IMG/VR virus record: IMGVR_UViG_3300013212_000045
Span: 1-37,792 of that record
Strand: one strand, 5' to 3'
DNA: 37,792 bases
From: a virus
The notes below the pieces were generated by a model. The model saw only the letters and a list, made by a program, of their open reading frames with translations. It searched no databases and was not told where the DNA came from. Of this stretch, positions 18,057-37,748 are shown in pieces. The position numbers were made by a program, and so were the translations under genes. Position 1 is the first letter of the stretch; each line of letters begins with the position of its first letter.

Positions 18057-18767
18057 CTATTGTTTCTTTTTACAATTGTCAAAGTGCCATCTAACCATTG
18101 CTGCTTTATTGCCAATTTTATTACAATGTATACATTTTGCAGTTTTCACAATTGATTGACCTTTAATCCAACCTTTAGGTACTTCATCAATATTATTGAA
18201 TCTCCTATTCTCTTTGGTATTTGGGTCATGATAAACGTTTACTCCTGTATTTAATTCTCTTAAATATTCTTTAAACTCTTCGGAAGGTTTATAATTAAAC
18301 TCTTGTTGTTTTTTCTTAATTTTAGCTTTGGTTTCTTCTGACAATTTGTTTCCTAATTGGCCTAATCTCATTTTTTCTAATGTTTGCTTACTAAAAACCC
18401 TACCTTTTAATTTTCTAGACATCTTAGCTCTATGATGATCTGATAGTGGAATTCCTTCTTTGTTATAAAAAGTAGAAGTTTGCTTTGCTCTATTATAAAA
18501 AGATTCATTAAACCCTACATTAAATCTATTATGTAGTTTAATTTCAAGTTCTAAAGCCTCTTTTCGCGAATTAAAAACGGAGACAATAACATACTTGTAA
18601 TCCTGTGGATTAATCTTTTGGTCATCGCGAAATTCTTTGTCTGATGAACTTGAAAAATATTTGACACCTAAATCTTTAGATGGTTCTGTAGTTGAACTCC
18701 TTGTGCCGTAATAATGTTTTCTGAGTTTTGTGTTGGTAATCCTATACACATAGTGATATATGTTCAT
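18057..18767 (-). CDS. GIY-YIG homing endonuclease (236 aa)
   Basis: Residues 4-100 are a GIY-YIG nuclease domain of the variant type YVYRITN...HYYGTRSS. Conserved downstream blocks follow (DLGVKYFSSSSDKEF; EALELEIKLHNRFNV), then helix-turn-helix NUMOD-type repeats (LSDHHRAKMSRKLKGR, FSKQTLEKMRLGQLG). A C-terminal zinc finger of CxxC...H...C type ends it (CIHCNKIGNKAAMVRWHFDNC). It sits between the aminopeptidase gene and a displaced copy of that gene's 3' end, so the peptidase gene end is the probable target. Its leader contains the interlocked repeats at 18777-18892. Confidence 0.9.
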   Translation of the reverse strand: MNIYHYVYRITNTKLRKHYYGTRSSTTEPSKDLGVKYFSSSSDKEFRDDQKINPQDYKYVIVSVFNSRKEALELEIKLHNRFNVGFNESFYNRAKQTSTFYNKEGIPLSDHHRAKMSRKLKGRVFSKQTLEKMRLGQLGNKLSEETKAKIKKKQQEFNYKPSEEFKEYLRELNTGVNVYHDPNTKENRRFNNIDEVPKGWIKGQSIVKTAKCIHCNKIGNKAAMVRWHFDNCKKKQ

Positions 18768-22861: not shown

Positions 22862-23107
22862 TTATTTTGTATAGTTTCGGTCTAAAAGGTCATGCCATGT
22901 AAGTACTCCAACCAAATGCGGAAGTGACCATGAATCAGTGTACATTTCAAAATCTCCATCATAATTTGTAAAATTAATTTTGTAGATTTCCGGAAGAACC
23001 GTTACTATACAAAGTCCATTAACAAATTGATTACTTTTAACAGTTTTAAATGAGTTTCTCTCTAAGAAACTTGCCACATAAGGATTAACAATCTCTTCCA
23101 TTTTCAT
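22862..23107 (-). CDS. Hypothetical protein (81 aa)
   Basis: A small alpha/beta protein with alternating strands (GLCIVTVLPEIYKINFTNYDGDFEMY) and a C-terminal helix (LVGVLTWHDLLDRNYTK). It starts inside the last codons of the ligase C-half gene (23-base overlap). Function unknown. Confidence 0.5.
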   Translation of the reverse strand: MKMEEIVNPYVASFLERNSFKTVKSNQFVNGLCIVTVLPEIYKINFTNYDGDFEMYTDSWSLPHLVGVLTWHDLLDRNYTK

Positions 23108-23996
23108 ATATTGCTTTTACGGTTGGAAATCTTAAAGAGATTCCTTTATCGGTGAATGATTCTTCAAAAAATTGTACTGTTATTTGTTTTCCAATGATTT
23201 CTCTAGGATTCTCAAAGTAGTAACGTTTCTGTTCGTGGTTAAATCCACTACCAACTTGAACTCTGTAACCTTTGTGCTCGATTACAACGTTTCTCATCAT
23301 CATCTCTTCAACCTCCTTACCGTCAACAATAACTCTATTGACTGCATTCTCGATGTCAACTACAATATATTCTGCATCGTAGAATTGTTTTACCTTAAGT
23401 ACATCATTACTACGTTTTCCTTGGTAAGGAGCATCTTTACGTAACATTAGTCCTTCCCATCCGTTCTCTTTTGCAGTTGTAACATGAAACATTAACATTT
23501 GCTCATCAATAAGAATTGTTTGTGGCAAATAATCAATATGATTAAATTCTCTTTGAAAGAAAAGGTTATCCAATTGAACATTTCTAACTGAGAAAGGTGT
23601 AGTACCCTCTTTTTTAACAAATTCATCCATTGTTAGGAGGTCGAACATATAAAAGAATGGATTTTCAATTGTATGGTCTTTACGTTTAATTTCTTTAATA
23701 ATACCTTGAAAATTTTCATTTCCATTAGCATCCAACATACAAATTTCTCCATCAATAACCATATTCTTTAGGCCTAATGAGATAATCTCAGCGTCCAGGT
23801 TCTTAAGAGTTAGGAATTCATTTCCAGCTCTAGAGAAATATGTAGGTTCTCCATTCTCATTAATGATACAAATACATCGGCAGTTATGTACTAATATGTC
23901 ATTTGCAAAGAAATTTTCATTATCTTCTACTTGAAGGTCATATTTGTCGTAACTTTTATTTAATTTTTTAATTGATTTAATTCTAACATTTTCCAT
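23085..23996 (-). CDS. DNA ligase C-terminal half with N-terminal split-intein C fragment (303 aa)
   Basis: Residues 1-38 (MENVRIKSIKKLNKSYDKYD...ANDILVHN) are an intein C fragment: block F (DNENFFANDILVHN) ends in the conserved His-Asn just before Cys39, the +1 nucleophile. Residues 39-303 continue an ATP-dependent DNA ligase: CRCIC (rest of motif I, Arg40 follows KLDG-C), VIDGEICML, FYMFDLLT (motif III), EGLMLRKDAPYQGKRS (motif IV) and DVLKVKQF (motif V). Trans-splicing with 24901-25710 would give a ligase of about 429 residues. Its first 37 bases overlap the end of the endonuclease gene. Confidence 0.9.
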   Translation of the reverse strand: MENVRIKSIKKLNKSYDKYDLQVEDNENFFANDILVHNCRCICIINENGEPTYFSRAGNEFLTLKNLDAEIISLGLKNMVIDGEICMLDANGNENFQGIIKEIKRKDHTIENPFFYMFDLLTMDEFVKKEGTTPFSVRNVQLDNLFFQREFNHIDYLPQTILIDEQMLMFHVTTAKENGWEGLMLRKDAPYQGKRSNDVLKVKQFYDAEYIVVDIENAVNRVIVDGKEVEEMMMRNVVIEHKGYRVQVGSGFNHEQKRYYFENPREIIGKQITVQFFEESFTDKGISLRFPTVKAIYENGRDC

Positions 23997-24850
23997 AACT
24001 TTTCACTATTTAGTTCTTTAATATCTGATTCCCATAAAACAATAACTTTAAACCCGAACGATTCTATTTGTTTGTTTCTTTTTTTATCATGTTCCCAAAT
24101 TTCTTTAACAATAACATCTCCACCCCATTTACAAATAATATCATTCTCTTTGTATTTCAAAGGATTTCCATGCCAATAATCTCCATTAATTTCAATCACA
24201 ATATTTAAACTTGGTATAATAATATCAGGTCTAGGATTATATCCATCAATTGTAAAATCATACGTATTATCTTCAGATGTGAAATTTATATTTAATTCAT
24301 TTAATAATAGTTCTACTTTAATGTGTGGCTTTGATTTTCTTCCCGAGTTCATGTATCTTCCAGGAATTTGAACAGCATTTAAAACTCCATATTTTTCAAA
24401 AATAGTACTTGTTATTTTATCTTTAATTTCTAAAGATTGGAATACATTACTAACTCCATATTTTTCAATCACTGTATTGTTTCTTTCTTCAAACTTATAA
24501 CTATTTTTACCCAAAACATTAGTATCTCCATATTTTTTTAGGCATGTTTCTTCATATAGTTTTCTGCATGAATCCATATTGGCGGCTCCTTTAGAAGACC
24601 TTGTATCATAACCAAACTCTTTTAATTTGCTTATTATTTGCCCGGCACCTATTCCTGGATAATTAAGTTTCTTTGCAATTTGAAGCGCTGATAGTCCATT
24701 GATAAAATACATTTCATACAAATACTCTTTAGTTATTGAATCCCTATACGATTTAACATTGTTTAGATAAATTTCACATCTAGCAGAATGTCCTTTTAAT
24801 TGAGGTTTTCTATCAAATTTTTTGCCACAAATACATTCGAAATCAAACAT
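23960..24850 (-). CDS. Vsr-like (EDxHD-type) homing endonuclease between split-intein halves (296 aa)
   Basis: The N-terminal finger is CICGKKFDRKPQLKGHSARC (CxC...H...C). Central DNA-binding repeats follow (EKYGVSNVFQS and EKYGVLNAVQI; KKYGDTNVL). The C-terminal Vsr-like nuclease core has YNPRPDIIIPSLNIVIEINGDYWHGN and WEHDKKRNKQIESFGFKVIVLWESDI. This family is known from phage genes split by inteins. It is a free gene with its own GATATATAAC leader motif and a small hairpin (CTTAAA/TTTAAG) before the ATG. It probably cuts ligase genes lacking the insertion at the KLDG coding site. Confidence 0.88.
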   Translation of the reverse strand: MFDFECICGKKFDRKPQLKGHSARCEIYLNNVKSYRDSITKEYLYEMYFINGLSALQIAKKLNYPGIGAGQIISKLKEFGYDTRSSKGAANMDSCRKLYEETCLKKYGDTNVLGKNSYKFEERNNTVIEKYGVSNVFQSLEIKDKITSTIFEKYGVLNAVQIPGRYMNSGRKSKPHIKVELLLNELNINFTSEDNTYDFTIDGYNPRPDIIIPSLNIVIEINGDYWHGNPLKYKENDIICKWGGDVIVKEIWEHDKKRNKQIESFGFKVIVLWESDIKELNSEKLWKMLELNQLKN

Positions 24851-24862
24851 AATCTTAAATTT

Positions 24863-24875
24863 TTATTTAAGTTAT
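24863..24875 (-). promoter_or_regulatory. GATATATAA promoter motif before the ligase-locus endonuclease
   Basis: AAAGATATATAAC on the minus strand lies about 15 bases before a CTTAAA/TTTAAG hairpin that ends 4 bases from the ATG at 24850. It matches the motif before the other three endonuclease genes. Confidence 0.5.
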
Positions 24876-24900
24876 ATATCTTTATTTTTCGAGTAAAAAA

Positions 24901-25710
24901 TTAGACGGTGATTAATAATTTTTCATCTCCATTTAATTCATCAGTTCTTCTCCAGCATTTTAATTCGGGCAACCACACTCTATGATTTCCAGTCAGTTTT
25001 ATTTTTTTGCCATCTTCTAATTCAATCTCAAACCATTCTGAATTATCTCCGCTAATATCATCTAAATTAACCATCCAATCTTTGATAGTTTTAAATTCTA
25101 TTTTATTGGAATGCGTATTGTATGATTTAATTCTGCCTTTAACTCTATTGTCTACTACTTCTTTTATAGTTAACTTTGTACCATCTTCAAATTCAATAAT
25201 AGAATCCTTATGCAAACATCCGTCTAATTTACGACTTACAAACCAAGTATCATTAAAGTCTACCTTCTTTGCCATTTTCTCATCATAAGAATTGGCCAAT
25301 GCAACATCGAATGTAGGAATTAAATCAGGAATTACCTTGTTAATCATAGAGGTTGTAGAACGGGTCTTAAGGTTTCTATCAATAATAGAGAAAATCAAAT
25401 CCTCGTGTTTCTTATTTGCTTCTACGAATCCATTTACCAAACTAATTGCAGTATGTCCTGTAATAAATCTTATTGATAAATCATCCAATAGTTTAAAAAG
25501 ATCGCTGTAGCCATATTTAACTAAATTAGAATTCTTCTTGCAATTAGCTGAAGTTACTCCATACTGTTTAAACGTATTGTATGTGTATTCTAAAGCATTA
25601 CGAACTGCTTCGTTGTTGGCATACTTTTTAAGTACATTTAACTTGTCAGTGTTTGAGTTTGTAGCATTTTGTGCATCTACGAATTCTTGTATTTGTTCTA
25701 AATTTGTCAT
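24901..25710 (-). CDS. DNA ligase N-terminal half with split-intein N fragment (269 aa)
   Basis: Residues 1-164 are the ligase N-terminal region, ending in the nucleotidyl-transfer motif KLDG with the AMP-accepting Lys161. Residue Cys165 starts an intein N fragment of 105 residues: block A (CLHKDSIIEFEDGTKL), then block B with the T-x-x-H motif (TGNHRVWLPELKCW, residues 240-253), ending EKLLITV-stop. There is no endonuclease domain inside. The frame stops cleanly, 50 bases before the endonuclease gene. Alone it cannot be an active ligase because Arg and later motifs are on the other polypeptide. It heads the unit behind promoter copy 3. Confidence 0.9.
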   Translation of the reverse strand: MTNLEQIQEFVDAQNATNSNTDKLNVLKKYANNEAVRNALEYTYNTFKQYGVTSANCKKNSNLVKYGYSDLFKLLDDLSIRFITGHTAISLVNGFVEANKKHEDLIFSIIDRNLKTRSTTSMINKVIPDLIPTFDVALANSYDEKMAKKVDFNDTWFVSRKLDGCLHKDSIIEFEDGTKLTIKEVVDNRVKGRIKSYNTHSNKIEFKTIKDWMVNLDDISGDNSEWFEIELEDGKKIKLTGNHRVWLPELKCWRRTDELNGDEKLLITV

Positions 25711-25733
25711 AAATTGTTTGTTTTAATTATAAT

Positions 25734-25767
25734 GTAAATATAATCAATATATTTGAATCCTGAAAAC
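25734..25767 (-). promoter_or_regulatory. Phage promoter module, copy 3
   Basis: GTTTTCAGGATTC followed by TATTGATTATATTTACAT on the minus strand, 24 bases before the ligase N-half ATG. The upstream 20-base stretch AAAAAGTTATTAACAATTTG (plus strand) also occurs next to copy 8 near 37065. Confidence 0.7.
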
Positions 25768-25805: not shown

Positions 25806-25875
25806 AAGCCAGAGCAGGATTCGAACCTGCACCGCTTGACTCTGCAAGCAATTGCTACCGTTACACCACCTGACT
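25806..25875 (-). tRNA. tRNA-like gene with irregular anticodon arm
   Basis: Acceptor AGTCAGG/TCTGGCT (7 bp with two G-U pairs), a D-arm-like GTGTAACGGTAGC and a perfect T-arm (GCAGG TTCGAAT CCTGC) are present. The central arm pairs best as TTGCTTG/CAAGCGG (7 pairs, two of them G-U) around a 6-base loop CAGAGT, with no U33. Forcing a Cys(GCA) reading breaks two stem pairs. It may be a degenerate tRNA, a tRNA-like RNA, or contain a sequence error. CCA is not encoded. Confidence 0.5.
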
Positions 25876-26034: not shown

Positions 26035-26151
26035 TGGTCAGTGTAGGATTCGAACCTACATTTTTAGCAAAGGCCTTTACTAAAAAACTTACACTGTTTT
26101 TATAGAGTGGTGTCGTCCCACTGTAGCGTCTACCAATTCCGCCAACTGACC
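26035..26151 (-). tRNA. tRNA-Leu-like element with expanded central region
   Basis: Acceptor GGTCAGT/ACTGACC, discriminator A, a D-arm of leucine type (GCGGAATTGGTAGACGC) and T-arm GTAGG TTCGAAT CCTAC are all good. Between the D-arm and T-arm lie about 67 bases instead of the usual 30-35. They hold AGTGG/CCACT with loop GACGACA, a possible outer TACA/TGTA pairing, and a hairpin TTTTTAG/CTAAAAA around AAAGGCCTTT. No normal Leu anticodon with U33 can be placed. It may be an interrupted tRNA-Leu or a non-decoding tRNA mimic. Confidence 0.55.
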
Positions 26152-27536: not shown

Positions 27537-27560
27537 GATTTCTTTGTTTTAATTAGATAT

Positions 27561-27593
27561 GTAAATATAATCAATAGTTTTGAATCCGGAAAC
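27561..27593 (-). promoter_or_regulatory. Phage promoter module, copy 4
   Basis: GTTTCCGGATTC then TATTGATTATATTTACATATC on the minus strand, 24 bases before the ATG at 27536. A variant of the shared 18-base element (GTTAAATTTATGTTAAAA, plus strand 27602-27619) lies upstream across the stop of 27609-28049. Confidence 0.7.
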
Positions 27594-28373: not shown

Positions 28374-28532
28374 TTAACCTAAGAATTCTTCGTCTTCGTC
28401 AAACTCAAGAAGATTGTCCGTTTTGGTCTCTTTTTTAATCTCGTTTCCATTATCATCTAAATGGGGAGCACTATGTAATTCGTATGCGGCATATATACCT
28501 ACAATTACAAAATAAATTATAAATCCTATCAT
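28374..28532 (-). CDS. Small single-pass membrane protein (52 aa)
   Basis: The ATG at 28530-28532 overlaps the endonuclease stop (ATGA). A hydrophobic segment (residues 1-17, MIGFIIYFVIVGIYAAY) is followed by a very acidic tail (NLLEFDEDEEFLG). It belongs to the same transcript as the endonuclease and was probably the next gene after 29227-29862 before the endonuclease arrived. Confidence 0.6.
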   Translation of the reverse strand: MIGFIIYFVIVGIYAAYELHSAPHLDDNGNEIKKETKTDNLLEFDEDEEFLG

Positions 28533-29092
28533 TTTATTTTATTTTTACAATTTTCAAAATGCCAACGTTGCATTATATTAACTCCACCCGATAAATTACA
28601 ATGAGGACATGTTGAAGTTTTAAATGCACCTCTAGAAATTCCTTTCGTTTTCTCCGATATTCTTTTGCCACATTCTTTGTATTGCTCCTGTGTTCTGGTA
28701 ACCTTTTTTCTTTTTATTTTTTCAGCTTCTGCCATATCTCCAAAAAGTTCTTCATAACTTTTACCTTTAAAGAATTTTTTAATCTTATCTTTAGCTTCTT
28801 GGGTATGATTTGATCTGAATCCCTCTCCTCCTTTTGTAATGTTATACCCTATATAATGATCCGTTGAATTATATTTATTAATCCAATAGATTTCACGTTC
28901 ACTTAGTATTTGCATACATGAAATTCCATCTTCCAGTATTTCCTTGATAAAGTGTTCTTTGCCATATTTTTTTATAGCCCTGCTCTGTATTTCGCCCGAG
29001 CCTAGATAATTAATTGATTTTTCTACTGATTTTGTAGATAATCCAATATAAATTTTGTTGTTGATTGTGTTAGTTATCTTGTAGATATACAT
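28529..29092 (-). CDS. GIY-YIG homing endonuclease (187 aa)
   Basis: A canonical N-terminal GIY-YIG domain (YIYKITNTINNKIYIGLS, with the downstream YLGSGEIQSRAIKKYG and EREIYWINKYNS, catalytic Glu in REIYW). The linker GYNITKGGEGF is followed by a helical region and a C-terminal zinc finger CPHCNLSGGVNIMQRWHFENC, the same type as in the other two GIY-YIG genes here. The leader at 29101-29209 has the same interlocked repeats as the 18057-18767 gene. Confidence 0.9.
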   Translation of the reverse strand: MYIYKITNTINNKIYIGLSTKSVEKSINYLGSGEIQSRAIKKYGKEHFIKEILEDGISCMQILSEREIYWINKYNSTDHYIGYNITKGGEGFRSNHTQEAKDKIKKFFKGKSYEELFGDMAEAEKIKRKKVTRTQEQYKECGKRISEKTKGISRGAFKTSTCPHCNLSGGVNIMQRWHFENCKNKIK

Positions 29093-29100
29093 TGTGTTTG

Positions 29101-29209
29101 AGTTTTATTTTGTTGTTAGATTATATATCTCAAACATAAAAGAAAAGGTCTCCAGACAAACCATTTTAAGATAACAACAAAATAAAACTGAATGTATTAG
29201 GAGACCTTT
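29101..29209 (-). promoter_or_regulatory. Homing-endonuclease leader with interlocked inverted repeats (pseudoknot) and internal promoter
   Basis: A (29101-29118) is a perfect 18-bp inverted match of A' (29172-29189). B (29144-29153) is a perfect 10-bp match of B' (29200-29209, AAAGGTCTCC/GGAGACCTTT). In the minus RNA the order is B', A', B, A, ATG, with A ending 8 bases before the start codon. AGATATATAA at 29121-29130 lies between B and A. The layout equals that at 18777-18892, but the paired sequences differ. Confidence 0.75.
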
Positions 29210-29226
29210 GTATAATTAATCAAGTG

Positions 29227-29862
29227 TTACATCCACCAGCGTTCGATATTTTGTTCCATTAATTTGAATAATAATTTTCTTGCTCTGTCATGATTAATAT
29301 GTCCGATGTTCATTGCAATAATTTGTTTGTCCTCTTCGCGACCCTCTCTACCAAAAACTCCCTCTCCAGCTAGAACTCTTTTATAAATCAATGGGTATTT
29401 TTTAAAGTAGTCATCAAAGTTCTCTTCCAACAATTTGGACTCCCAAGATGATAGTGTTGGTTTGTCCGGAACAGGTTCAAACCAATGTTTTGTCTTGTGA
29501 TAATCAGAGTACTCAGAACTATAAAACTCGTCTTGAACCAGTCCCATTAACTTAACGCATAATCTCATAGTACGGGCATCCTCTTGGGCTCTGGTATGTA
29601 AATCTCTACGACCAATATAATCGGCTTGAGCAGATAATTTATGTTTCATTATATCAAAGATGTAATGAGAATCCCAATGTCGGTCCTTCCAAATGATAGG
29701 TAACCAATACCAAACACTTTGTATTCCTCGCTTGATAGTTATATGTAAATACTTGCCATCATGATTCCACCAAGCTGGAATGTATTTTAGTTTTCTTACA
29801 ATCCAAGATTCCTTTTCTCTTTTTTCGGCCCATTCGTCGAATATGTCTAATTCTGGTTCCAT
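29227..29862 (-). CDS. Conserved-type phage hypothetical protein (211 aa)
   Basis: A Trp-rich soluble protein. The middle WKDRHWDSHYIFDIMKHKL resembles a recurrent hypothetical protein of diverse phages. The C-terminus DKQIIAMNIGHINHDRARKLLFKLM is helical. There is no known enzyme motif. Its 3' end abuts the endonuclease leader (stop 17 bases before repeat B'), so it may be the homing target gene here. Confidence 0.6.
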   Translation of the reverse strand: MEPELDIFDEWAEKREKESWIVRKLKYIPAWWNHDGKYLHITIKRGIQSVWYWLPIIWKDRHWDSHYIFDIMKHKLSAQADYIGRRDLHTRAQEDARTMRLCVKLMGLVQDEFYSSEYSDYHKTKHWFEPVPDKPTLSSWESKLLEENFDDYFKKYPLIYKRVLAGEGVFGREGREEDKQIIAMNIGHINHDRARKLLFKLMEQNIERWWM

Positions 29863-32336: not shown

Positions 32337-32371
32337 GTGAGTTGTTTTTAAATTGTTGTTTTAATTATAAT

Positions 32372-32405
32372 GTAAATATAATCAATATGTATGATTCCGG
32401 AAAAT
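32372..32405 (-). promoter_or_regulatory. Phage promoter module, copy 6
   Basis: CGATTTTCCGGAATC then TATTGATTATATTTACAT on the minus strand. The 18-base element GTTAAAATTATGTTAAAG (32413-32430) spans the stop codon of the upstream gene. Confidence 0.7.
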
Positions 32406-35404: not shown

Positions 35405-35428
35405 TTTGTGTTTGTTTTAATTTGATAT

Positions 35429-35461
35429 GTAAGTATAATCAATAAGTTTGAATCGGGAAAA
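35429..35461 (-). promoter_or_regulatory. Phage promoter module, copy 7
   Basis: TTTTCCCGATTC then TATTGATTATACTTACAT on the minus strand (one core substitution). The 18-base element GTTAAAATTATGTTAAAG (35470-35487) spans the upstream stop codon. Confidence 0.7.
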
Positions 35462-36982: not shown

Positions 36983-37012
36983 AATTATATTTTTCTAGTT
37001 AAAATTAGATAT

Positions 37013-37045
37013 GTAAATATAATCAAAAAACCTGACACGGTAAAA
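37013..37045 (-). promoter_or_regulatory. Phage promoter module, copy 8
   Basis: TTTTACCG box and TATATTTACATATC core on the minus strand. About 65 bases here are nearly the same as the region of copy 1 (8168-8235). Confidence 0.7.
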
Positions 37046-37073: not shown

Positions 37074-37748
37074 TTAACAATTTGGTTTAAATTTACATCT
37101 TTCTAAATGCCATCTTTTCATATTTGAAGCTCCTCCTATTTTATTACAATAAGGACATTCTACTTTTTTCTGAGGTATATCCTTAAGTACTCCTTTTAAT
37201 CTATTACTTATATTTAATTTGCGTTCTTCTGTTAAATTTTTACCACTTAAAGATTCTTTTATTTTTAATTTAGTTTCTTTAGTGCGTTTTTTACCAAGAG
37301 AAGGATGCACCAATCTATTCTTAGCAGAATTACTCATTTTTAATTTACTTTCTGGAGTATGCCTTTTACCGGTTTGTTTATTTCGTAATTTAGCTTTGAT
37401 TTCGTCCGACATAGGTTCTAATTTTAAACCAATAGTAGTCCACCCAGATGCTGTTTGTTTGCATCTATTATAAAATTTTGAGTTTTTAGCTACTTCAAAT
37501 TTATTATGCAATTTAATTTCAAATAATAAAGCATCTTTTCTATTATTAAAGATAGAAACTATTTTTAGTTTAAATTGGTTTGGATTTTGTTTAAAATTAT
37601 TTACAAAATCTTTATCACTTGAAGATGTAAAATATTTAATACCTAAGTCTTCTTTTGGATGTAATTTGCTCGATCTTGAGCCATAATAGTGTTTGTTTTC
37701 TATAAGAGAAGTTACTCTATAGACGTAGTGGAATTTAAAATTTTTCAT
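37074..37748 (-). CDS. GIY-YIG homing endonuclease (224 aa)
   Basis: Same family as 18057-18767: HYVYRVTSLIENKHYYGSRSS, DLGIKYFTSSSDKDFV, DALLFEIKLHNKFEV in the nuclease domain. Three NUMOD-like repeats follow (MSDEIKAKLRNKQTGKR, HTPESKLKMSNSAKN, RTKETKLKIKESLSGK), then a zinc finger CPYCNKIGGASNMKRWHLERC. Gene ends 22 bases before a terminator. Its target gene would lie upstream of the window. Confidence 0.9.
   Translation of the reverse strand: MKNFKFHYVYRVTSLIENKHYYGSRSSKLHPKEDLGIKYFTSSSDKDFVNNFKQNPNQFKLKIVSIFNNRKDALLFEIKLHNKFEVAKNSKFYNRCKQTASGWTTIGLKLEPMSDEIKAKLRNKQTGKRHTPESKLKMSNSAKNRLVHPSLGKKRTKETKLKIKESLSGKNLTEERKLNISNRLKGVLKDIPQKKVECPYCNKIGGASNMKRWHLERCKFKPNC

What the first reader, a model, noticed from the sequence alone, without database searches (positions are those of the whole stretch)
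23085..25710. DNA ligase gene fractured by a split intein with a free-standing homing endonuclease between the halves
The upstream gene ends as ligase N-terminus + 105-residue intein N fragment (starts Cys165, T-x-x-H block B). The downstream gene begins with a 38-residue intein C fragment (ends His-Asn before Cys39) + the rest of the ligase. Between them lies a complete Vsr-like endonuclease gene. Both breaks carry intact splicing residues, so this is a working arrangement rather than a broken gene. Fractured genes of this type are known from environmental phage sequence for other replication genes; a naturally split intein in a ligase adds a new locus and possibly a fast trans-splicing pair.
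Basis: partly seen in the sequence, partly recalled or inferred. Interest (0 to 1): 0.88.

Follow-up and report, generated by a model that had tools for sequence, protein, structure and literature searches.

The report
Phage ligase fractured by split intein
A virus of bacteria carries its DNA-repair ligase gene in two pieces, with a DNA-cutting "homing" gene between them; each piece ends in half of a self-splicing protein that should rejoin the two ligase halves, and relatives show the whole insert jumping between phages.

Summary
On the minus strand, 25710-24901 encodes 164 residues of an ATP-dependent DNA ligase plus a 105-residue intein N-fragment. 24850-23960 encodes a 296-residue Vsr/EDxHD-type endonuclease. 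23996-23085 encodes a 38-residue intein C-fragment plus the remaining 265 ligase residues. The three frames differ. Syntenic relatives (e.g. L002, 98%/92% identical in the two exteins) carry the uninterrupted 429-residue ligase, so the empty site is exact: the break is K-L-D-G^C-R, inside the catalytic motif I. I found nine more fractured ligases at the same site in other viral contigs. In all ten, Cys1, Thr-Gly-Asn of block B, His-Asn and Cys+1-Arg are invariant. Two have lost the endonuclease yet keep both splicing halves. In one pair (L174/L175) the element differs at 4 of 1385 nt while the flanking exons differ at 23-30%: a recent homing event. Best reading: a "fractured gene" (Dassa et al. 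2009) in which protein trans-splicing restores the ligase and the free-standing endonuclease spreads the element. It is a well-supported new member of a known kind. No splicing was shown. I could not read Dassa's gene list, so whether ligase was already on it is open.

The parts
25219..25710 (-). Ligase N-extein, 164 aa, ends at motif I ...SRKLDG (catalytic Lys four residues before the splice junction)
   Evidence: phrog_114 ATP-dependent DNA ligase 3.9e-24; T4 DNA ligase 6dt1 8e-10; 98% identical to intact ligase of L002
24904..25218 (-). Intein N-fragment, 105 aa, Cys1, block A CLHKDSIIEFEDG, block B LTGNHRVWL; stop codon 24901-24903
   Evidence: NCBIfam intein_Nterm over its cut-off; NrdJ-1 split intein 8ubs; predicted fold matches Npu DnaE split intein 4qfq, Foldseek E 7e-6
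24851..24900 (-). AT-rich spacer (12% GC) between N-half stop and endonuclease start; no copy of the phage's promoter-like motif
23960..24850 (-). Free-standing Vsr/EDxHD-type homing endonuclease, 296 aa; mostly helical N-terminal part, nuclease domain about 172-296 with D209, E220, H227, D255
   Evidence: NCBIfam vsr 3e-8; PHROG homing endonuclease families; profile hit to I-Bth0305I 3r3p 6.8e-7; model pLDDT 90.6, matches 1cw0 and 3r3p
23883..23996 (-). Intein C-fragment, 38 aa with its own ATG, block F YDLQVEDNENFFAN, block G DILVHN; first 37 nt overlap the endonuclease gene
   Evidence: NCBIfam intein_Cterm 33.2 bits, cut-off 15.6
23085..23882 (-). Ligase C-extein, 265 aa starting Cys(+1)-Arg; rest of the nucleotidyltransferase domain and OB domain
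   Evidence: PF01068 3.2e-13 and PF14743 2.2e-9; phrog_114 1.3e-44
25732..25747 (-). Promoter-like motif TTGATTATATTTACAT upstream of the ligase N-half; none between here and 23085
   Evidence: 10 matches in the window (at most 3 mismatches) against 3.0 expected, 0 of 100 shuffles as many

Best explanation
A phage ATP-dependent DNA ligase is encoded as a fractured gene. The two halves are translated separately; the intein fragments (105 + 38 aa) associate, fold as one HINT domain and splice in trans (Cys1, Asn38 of IntC, Cys+1), giving a 429-residue ligase with an unscarred KLDG-CR motif I. The endonuclease in between is a homing enzyme: it is predicted to cut the uninterrupted ligase gene of a co-infecting phage near the motif-I codons, so that repair copies the whole 1.3-kb IntN-endonuclease-IntC block. 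Shown by sequence: the anatomy, empty sites, conservation, endonuclease decay with retained halves, and a recent transfer in relatives. Inferred: splicing, association of the halves, and the cleavage site.
For: Both intein halves recognised by curated models. N-fragment model resembles Npu DnaE split intein. Extein sum equals the intact ligase, with gap 0 in close relatives and full synteny. Ten distinct loci fractured at the same codon, with invariant C1, TGN, HN|C+1-R and a start codon opening each IntC half (ATG in nine, TTG in L029). dN/dS window vs L029: N-extein 0.07, IntN 0.12, endonuclease 0.24, IntC 0.08, C-extein 0.12 (dS near saturation). L068 and L125: endonuclease reduced to remnants with stops while both splicing halves stay open. 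L174 vs L175: element 4/1385 mismatches, exons 112/477 and 205/689, identity extending 24 nt upstream and 17 nt downstream. Inteins more alike than exteins in distant pairs, e.g. window-L025 53% vs 27%, L025-L125 79% vs 53%. Patchy occupancy: the window groups with empty L002/L004, L029 with empty L036. Contigs of L172 (223 kb) and L174 (200 kb) have no other ligase. Endonuclease fold and profile match Vsr and I-Bth0305I.
Against: No experiment shows splicing or cleavage. The window is a 37.8-kb fragment, so a second ligase elsewhere in this genome is not excluded, and the contig of L173 does hold further ligase-like matches. The Glu found at position 176 in most relatives is His here, so activity of this endonuclease is not certain. 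A mixed infection or assembly fault is not excluded for the window alone, though nine other loci make it unlikely.
Confidence: 0.93

Rival explanations
1. The ligase works as two non-covalently associated polypeptides; the intein fragments only hold them together, or are relics, and no splicing occurs (as in the genes-in-pieces ribonucleotide reductase of phage Aeh1).
For: A gene broken by a homing endonuclease that functions as two distinct peptides is on record for ribonucleotide reductase (described in PMC10448857). Three relatives (L068, L172, L173) have Asp in place of the block B His, which might mean reduced splicing there.
Against: C1, terminal Asn, penultimate His and Cys+1 are invariant in ten loci and the intein halves are under purifying selection; a docking device would not need them. 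The break lies four residues from the catalytic Lys, between motif I Lys and Arg.
Confidence: 0.04
2. The halves are decayed or non-functional and another ligase (host or phage) does the work; the element is a parasite on a dead gene.
For: The window is a fragment; the contig of L173 has additional ligase-like matches.
Against: dN/dS of both exteins well below 1; no stops or frameshifts in any of ten fractured pairs; one ligase only in intact relatives up to 256 kb and in two long fractured contigs.
Confidence: 0.02
3. Sequencing, assembly or mixed-strain artefact joining unrelated genes.
For: The contig is metagenomic.
Against: Independent contigs, L029 (halves 77% and 73% identical, endonuclease 58%) and eight others, have the same order and junctions.
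Confidence: 0.01

Closest known systems
Fractured genes with split inteins and Vsr-like endonucleases (Dassa et al. 2009, NAR 37:2560; from memory and from citations, text not held)
   Same: Phage replication/repair enzyme split by a split intein, separate endonuclease gene between the halves, Vsr/EDxHD-type nuclease.
   Different: Host gene here is an ATP-dependent DNA ligase broken at motif I; whether ligase is among the eight enzyme types of 2009 could not be checked. Here empty sites, endonuclease-loss stages and a recent transfer are all seen for one insertion site.
Split DNA polymerase B with intein and HNH endonuclease in Pseudomonas jumbo phage MIJ3 (PMC6892783)
   Same: Same three-gene layout in a jumbo phage.
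   Different: Different host gene and an HNH rather than Vsr-type endonuclease.
NrdJ-1 split intein (PDB 8ubs) and Npu DnaE split intein (4qfq)
   Same: NrdJ-1 is the best sequence match of IntN among solved structures; Npu DnaE is the best fold match; similar fragment sizes (DnaE about 102+36, from memory).
   Different: Low identity (about 20-33% over the aligned parts); different exteins; splicing untested.
EDxHD homing endonuclease I-Bth0305I (3r3p) and Vsr mismatch endonuclease (1cw0)
   Same: Nuclease fold; D209, H227, D255 conserved.
   Different: 16-20% identity; different N-terminal part; His instead of the common Glu at position 176.

Membership tests
Fractured gene (Dassa et al. 2009) | Conserved enzyme gene broken in two by a split intein, each half carrying one intein fragment | tested here: met
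   exact empty sites in L002-L024
Fractured gene (Dassa et al. 2009) | Free-standing endonuclease gene between the halves | tested here: met
   ORF 24850-23960, different frame from both halves
Fractured gene (Dassa et al. 2009) | Host is a phage DNA synthesis or repair enzyme | tested here: met
   ATP-dependent DNA ligase; record is an IMG/VR viral contig with tail and lysis genes
Fractured gene (Dassa et al. 2009) | Protein trans-splicing restores the enzyme | not testable with these tools
   needs co-expression and mass spectrometry
Class 1 split intein | Cys/Ser at position 1 and block B T-x-x-H in the N-fragment | tested here: met
   Cys1; TGNH at IntN 76-79; NCBIfam intein_Nterm over cut-off
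Class 1 split intein | Penultimate His, terminal Asn, Cys/Ser/Thr at +1 in the C-half | tested here: met
   HN|C invariant in ten loci; intein_Cterm over cut-off
Class 1 split intein | HINT fold | tested here: met
   N-fragment model only (mean pLDDT 72); top Foldseek matches are inteins, best 4qfq E 7e-6; only residues 1-51 superpose closely, Z about 7
EDxHD / Vsr-type homing endonuclease | Vsr-like nuclease fold | tested here: met
   1cw0 Z 12.1, 3r3p Z 10.2 over residues 172-296; profile hit 3r3p 6.8e-7
EDxHD / Vsr-type homing endonuclease | Catalytic Asp/His/Asp residues | tested here: met
   D209, H227, D255 (and E220) invariant in 39 homologues
EDxHD / Vsr-type homing endonuclease | The Glu at the start of the nuclease domain | tested here: inconclusive
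   Position 176 is Glu in 24 of 39 homologues but His in the window and in all seven other ligase endonucleases of the alignment; mapping of the family's named Glu to this column is my inference
EDxHD / Vsr-type homing endonuclease | Cuts the uninterrupted allele and drives copying of its own gene | not testable with these tools
   Indirect support: L174/L175 element near-identical within diverged exons

The most novel reading that the evidence does not exclude
The split at ligase motif I is kept because it serves the phage, for example by delaying ligase activation until both halves are made and spliced. Two lineages that lost the endonuclease still keep the halves apart, and one sub-lineage splices without the block B histidine.
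Probability: 0.1. Interest if true: 0.65.

Novelty: new member of a known kind. Interest (0 to 1): 0.47.

Why it matters
One insertion site now shows several stages of the life of a fractured gene: empty, occupied with endonuclease, endonuclease decaying with the split kept, and a recent transfer between phages with diverged ligases. That makes the origin and persistence of naturally split inteins testable by comparison. It also supplies about nine natural split-intein pairs, some with an altered block B, for trans-splicing tools, with an easy read-out because the halves of ligase motif I must be joined for activity.

Tried and rejected
Group I intron or RNA-level splicing: no Rfam intron match in the window at gathering score. 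Frameshift or read-through giving one polypeptide: three different frames, and each half opens with its own start codon. Bacillus phage vB_BcoS-136 seemed to match IntC plus C-extein, but its ligase is an uninterrupted gene. No cultured phage record holds this ligase intein; nearest IntN relatives are in UvsX-like recombinases of Erwinia and Yersinia phages and in Salicola phage SCTP-2. The genome-contig scan found no relative. The careful maximum-likelihood tree did not finish; the quick tree is used only for the neighbours of the window and of L029. Co-conversion in the window against L002-L005 shows no clear identity peak at the junction, so a recent acquisition is not shown for the window itself. 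Literature searches for a fractured or intein-bearing phage DNA ligase found nothing, but the library lacks Dassa 2009 and the I-Bth0305I paper.

Full report
Observation. All coordinates and residues in the finding are correct. The window is one viral contig fragment of 37,792 bases. On the minus strand: N-half 25710-24901 (164 aa ligase + 105 aa IntN), endonuclease 24850-23960 (296 aa), C-half 23996-23085 (38 aa IntC + 265 aa ligase). The three lie in different frames; the endonuclease starts 50 nt after the N-half stop and overlaps the C-half by 37 nt.

Identity of the pieces. phrog_114 (ATP-dependent DNA ligase) matches the N-half over model positions 85-250 and the C-half over 250-497, contiguous across the break. 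Pfam gives the ligase adenylation and OB domains for the C-half. NCBIfam intein_Nterm and intein_Cterm are over their cut-offs and fall exactly at the junctions. The IntN model, though of moderate confidence (pLDDT 72), has Npu DnaE and other inteins as its top fold matches. The endonuclease matches Vsr, profile search finds I-Bth0305I and Vsr, and its model (pLDDT 90.6) superposes on Vsr 1cw0 (Z 12.1) and I-Bth0305I (Z 10.2) over residues 172-296.

Empty sites. Close relatives L002-L005 carry the same ligase without interruption, in the same gene neighbourhood. The N-extein is 98% and the C-extein 92% identical to L002. The break sits in motif I...RKLDG^CRC.... The catalytic Lys is on one polypeptide and the motif's Arg on the other. 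Of the loci fetched, 111 (many duplicates) have the two exteins abutting.

A family of fractured ligases. Profile searches and classification give ten distinct fractured ligases at the same site: the window, L025, L029, L068, L081, L125, L172, L173, L174, L175. Their ligases are as little as 25-28% identical to the window's. Cys1, TGN of block B, and HN|C+1-R are invariant; IntC opens with its own ATG in nine of the ten and with TTG in L029. Three (L068, L172, L173) have Asp where block B normally has His.

Function is selected. dN/dS between the window and L029 is 0.07-0.12 for exteins and intein halves and 0.24 for the endonuclease (dS near saturation, so values are rough). In L068 and L125 the endonuclease is a remnant with stop codons, about 200 nt separate the halves, and both halves remain open with all splicing residues except the block B His of L068. 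A dead gene would not look like this.

Mobility. L174 and L175 share an element with 4 differences in 1385 nt inside exons that differ at 23% and 30%; identity runs 24 nt upstream and 17 nt downstream of the element. That is the signature of recent homing with short co-conversion tracts. In distant pairs the inteins are more alike than the exteins. Occupancy is patchy at the tips of the ligase tree. For the window itself no co-conversion peak is visible, so its insertion may be old or its donor lineage unsampled.

Only ligase? Intact relatives of 199-256 kb have one PF01068 ligase. The fractured contigs of L172 (223 kb) and L174 (200 kb) have no other ATP- or NAD-dependent ligase; L173 does have others. 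For the window's own genome this cannot be settled.

Expression. A motif TTGATTATATTTACAT lies directly upstream of the ligase N-half and of several other genes; none occurs between 23085 and 25700, so the endonuclease and the C-half are probably read from the ligase promoter (inference).

Known context. The arrangement is that of Dassa et al. 2009, cited in many held papers but not itself held. A split PolB with an HNH endonuclease is known from phage MIJ3. No held paper found describes a fractured or intein-bearing phage ligase. I therefore file this as a new member of a known kind; ligase as host gene may or may not be new.

Verdict. Real, almost certainly functional, and instructive as an evolutionary series, but not a new kind of system.

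Noticed in passing
L068:6451-6762, L172:5577-5894, L173:5614-5931: Related ligase inteins with T-G-N-D instead of T-G-N-H in block B, the His being normally important for the first splicing step; all other splicing residues kept.
   Followed up: partly
window 28529-29092: Another free-standing homing endonuclease gene (phrog_314); alignments of L002, L003, L004 and L007 jump from about 28528 to 29233, so it is absent there: a second optional insert.
   Followed up: partly
window 18057-18767 and 37074-37748: Two further phrog_314 homing endonuclease genes, making at least four endonuclease genes in 38 kb.
   Followed up: no
window 25732-25747, 27559-27574, 32370-32385, 35427-35442, 37011-37026, also 8170 and 9623: Repeated promoter-like motif TTGATTATATTTACAT, all on the minus strand upstream of genes; 10 matches against 3 expected.
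   Followed up: partly
window 26035-26151: tRNA-like sequence of 117 nt (Rfam 40 bits) with a long insert in the middle, not called by ARAGORN; a second weak tRNA at 25806-25875 with an odd anticodon loop.
   Followed up: partly
window 23960-24850, residue 176: All eight endonucleases of fractured ligases in the alignment have His at 176 where most relatives have Glu, a subfamily mark near the active site.
   Followed up: partly
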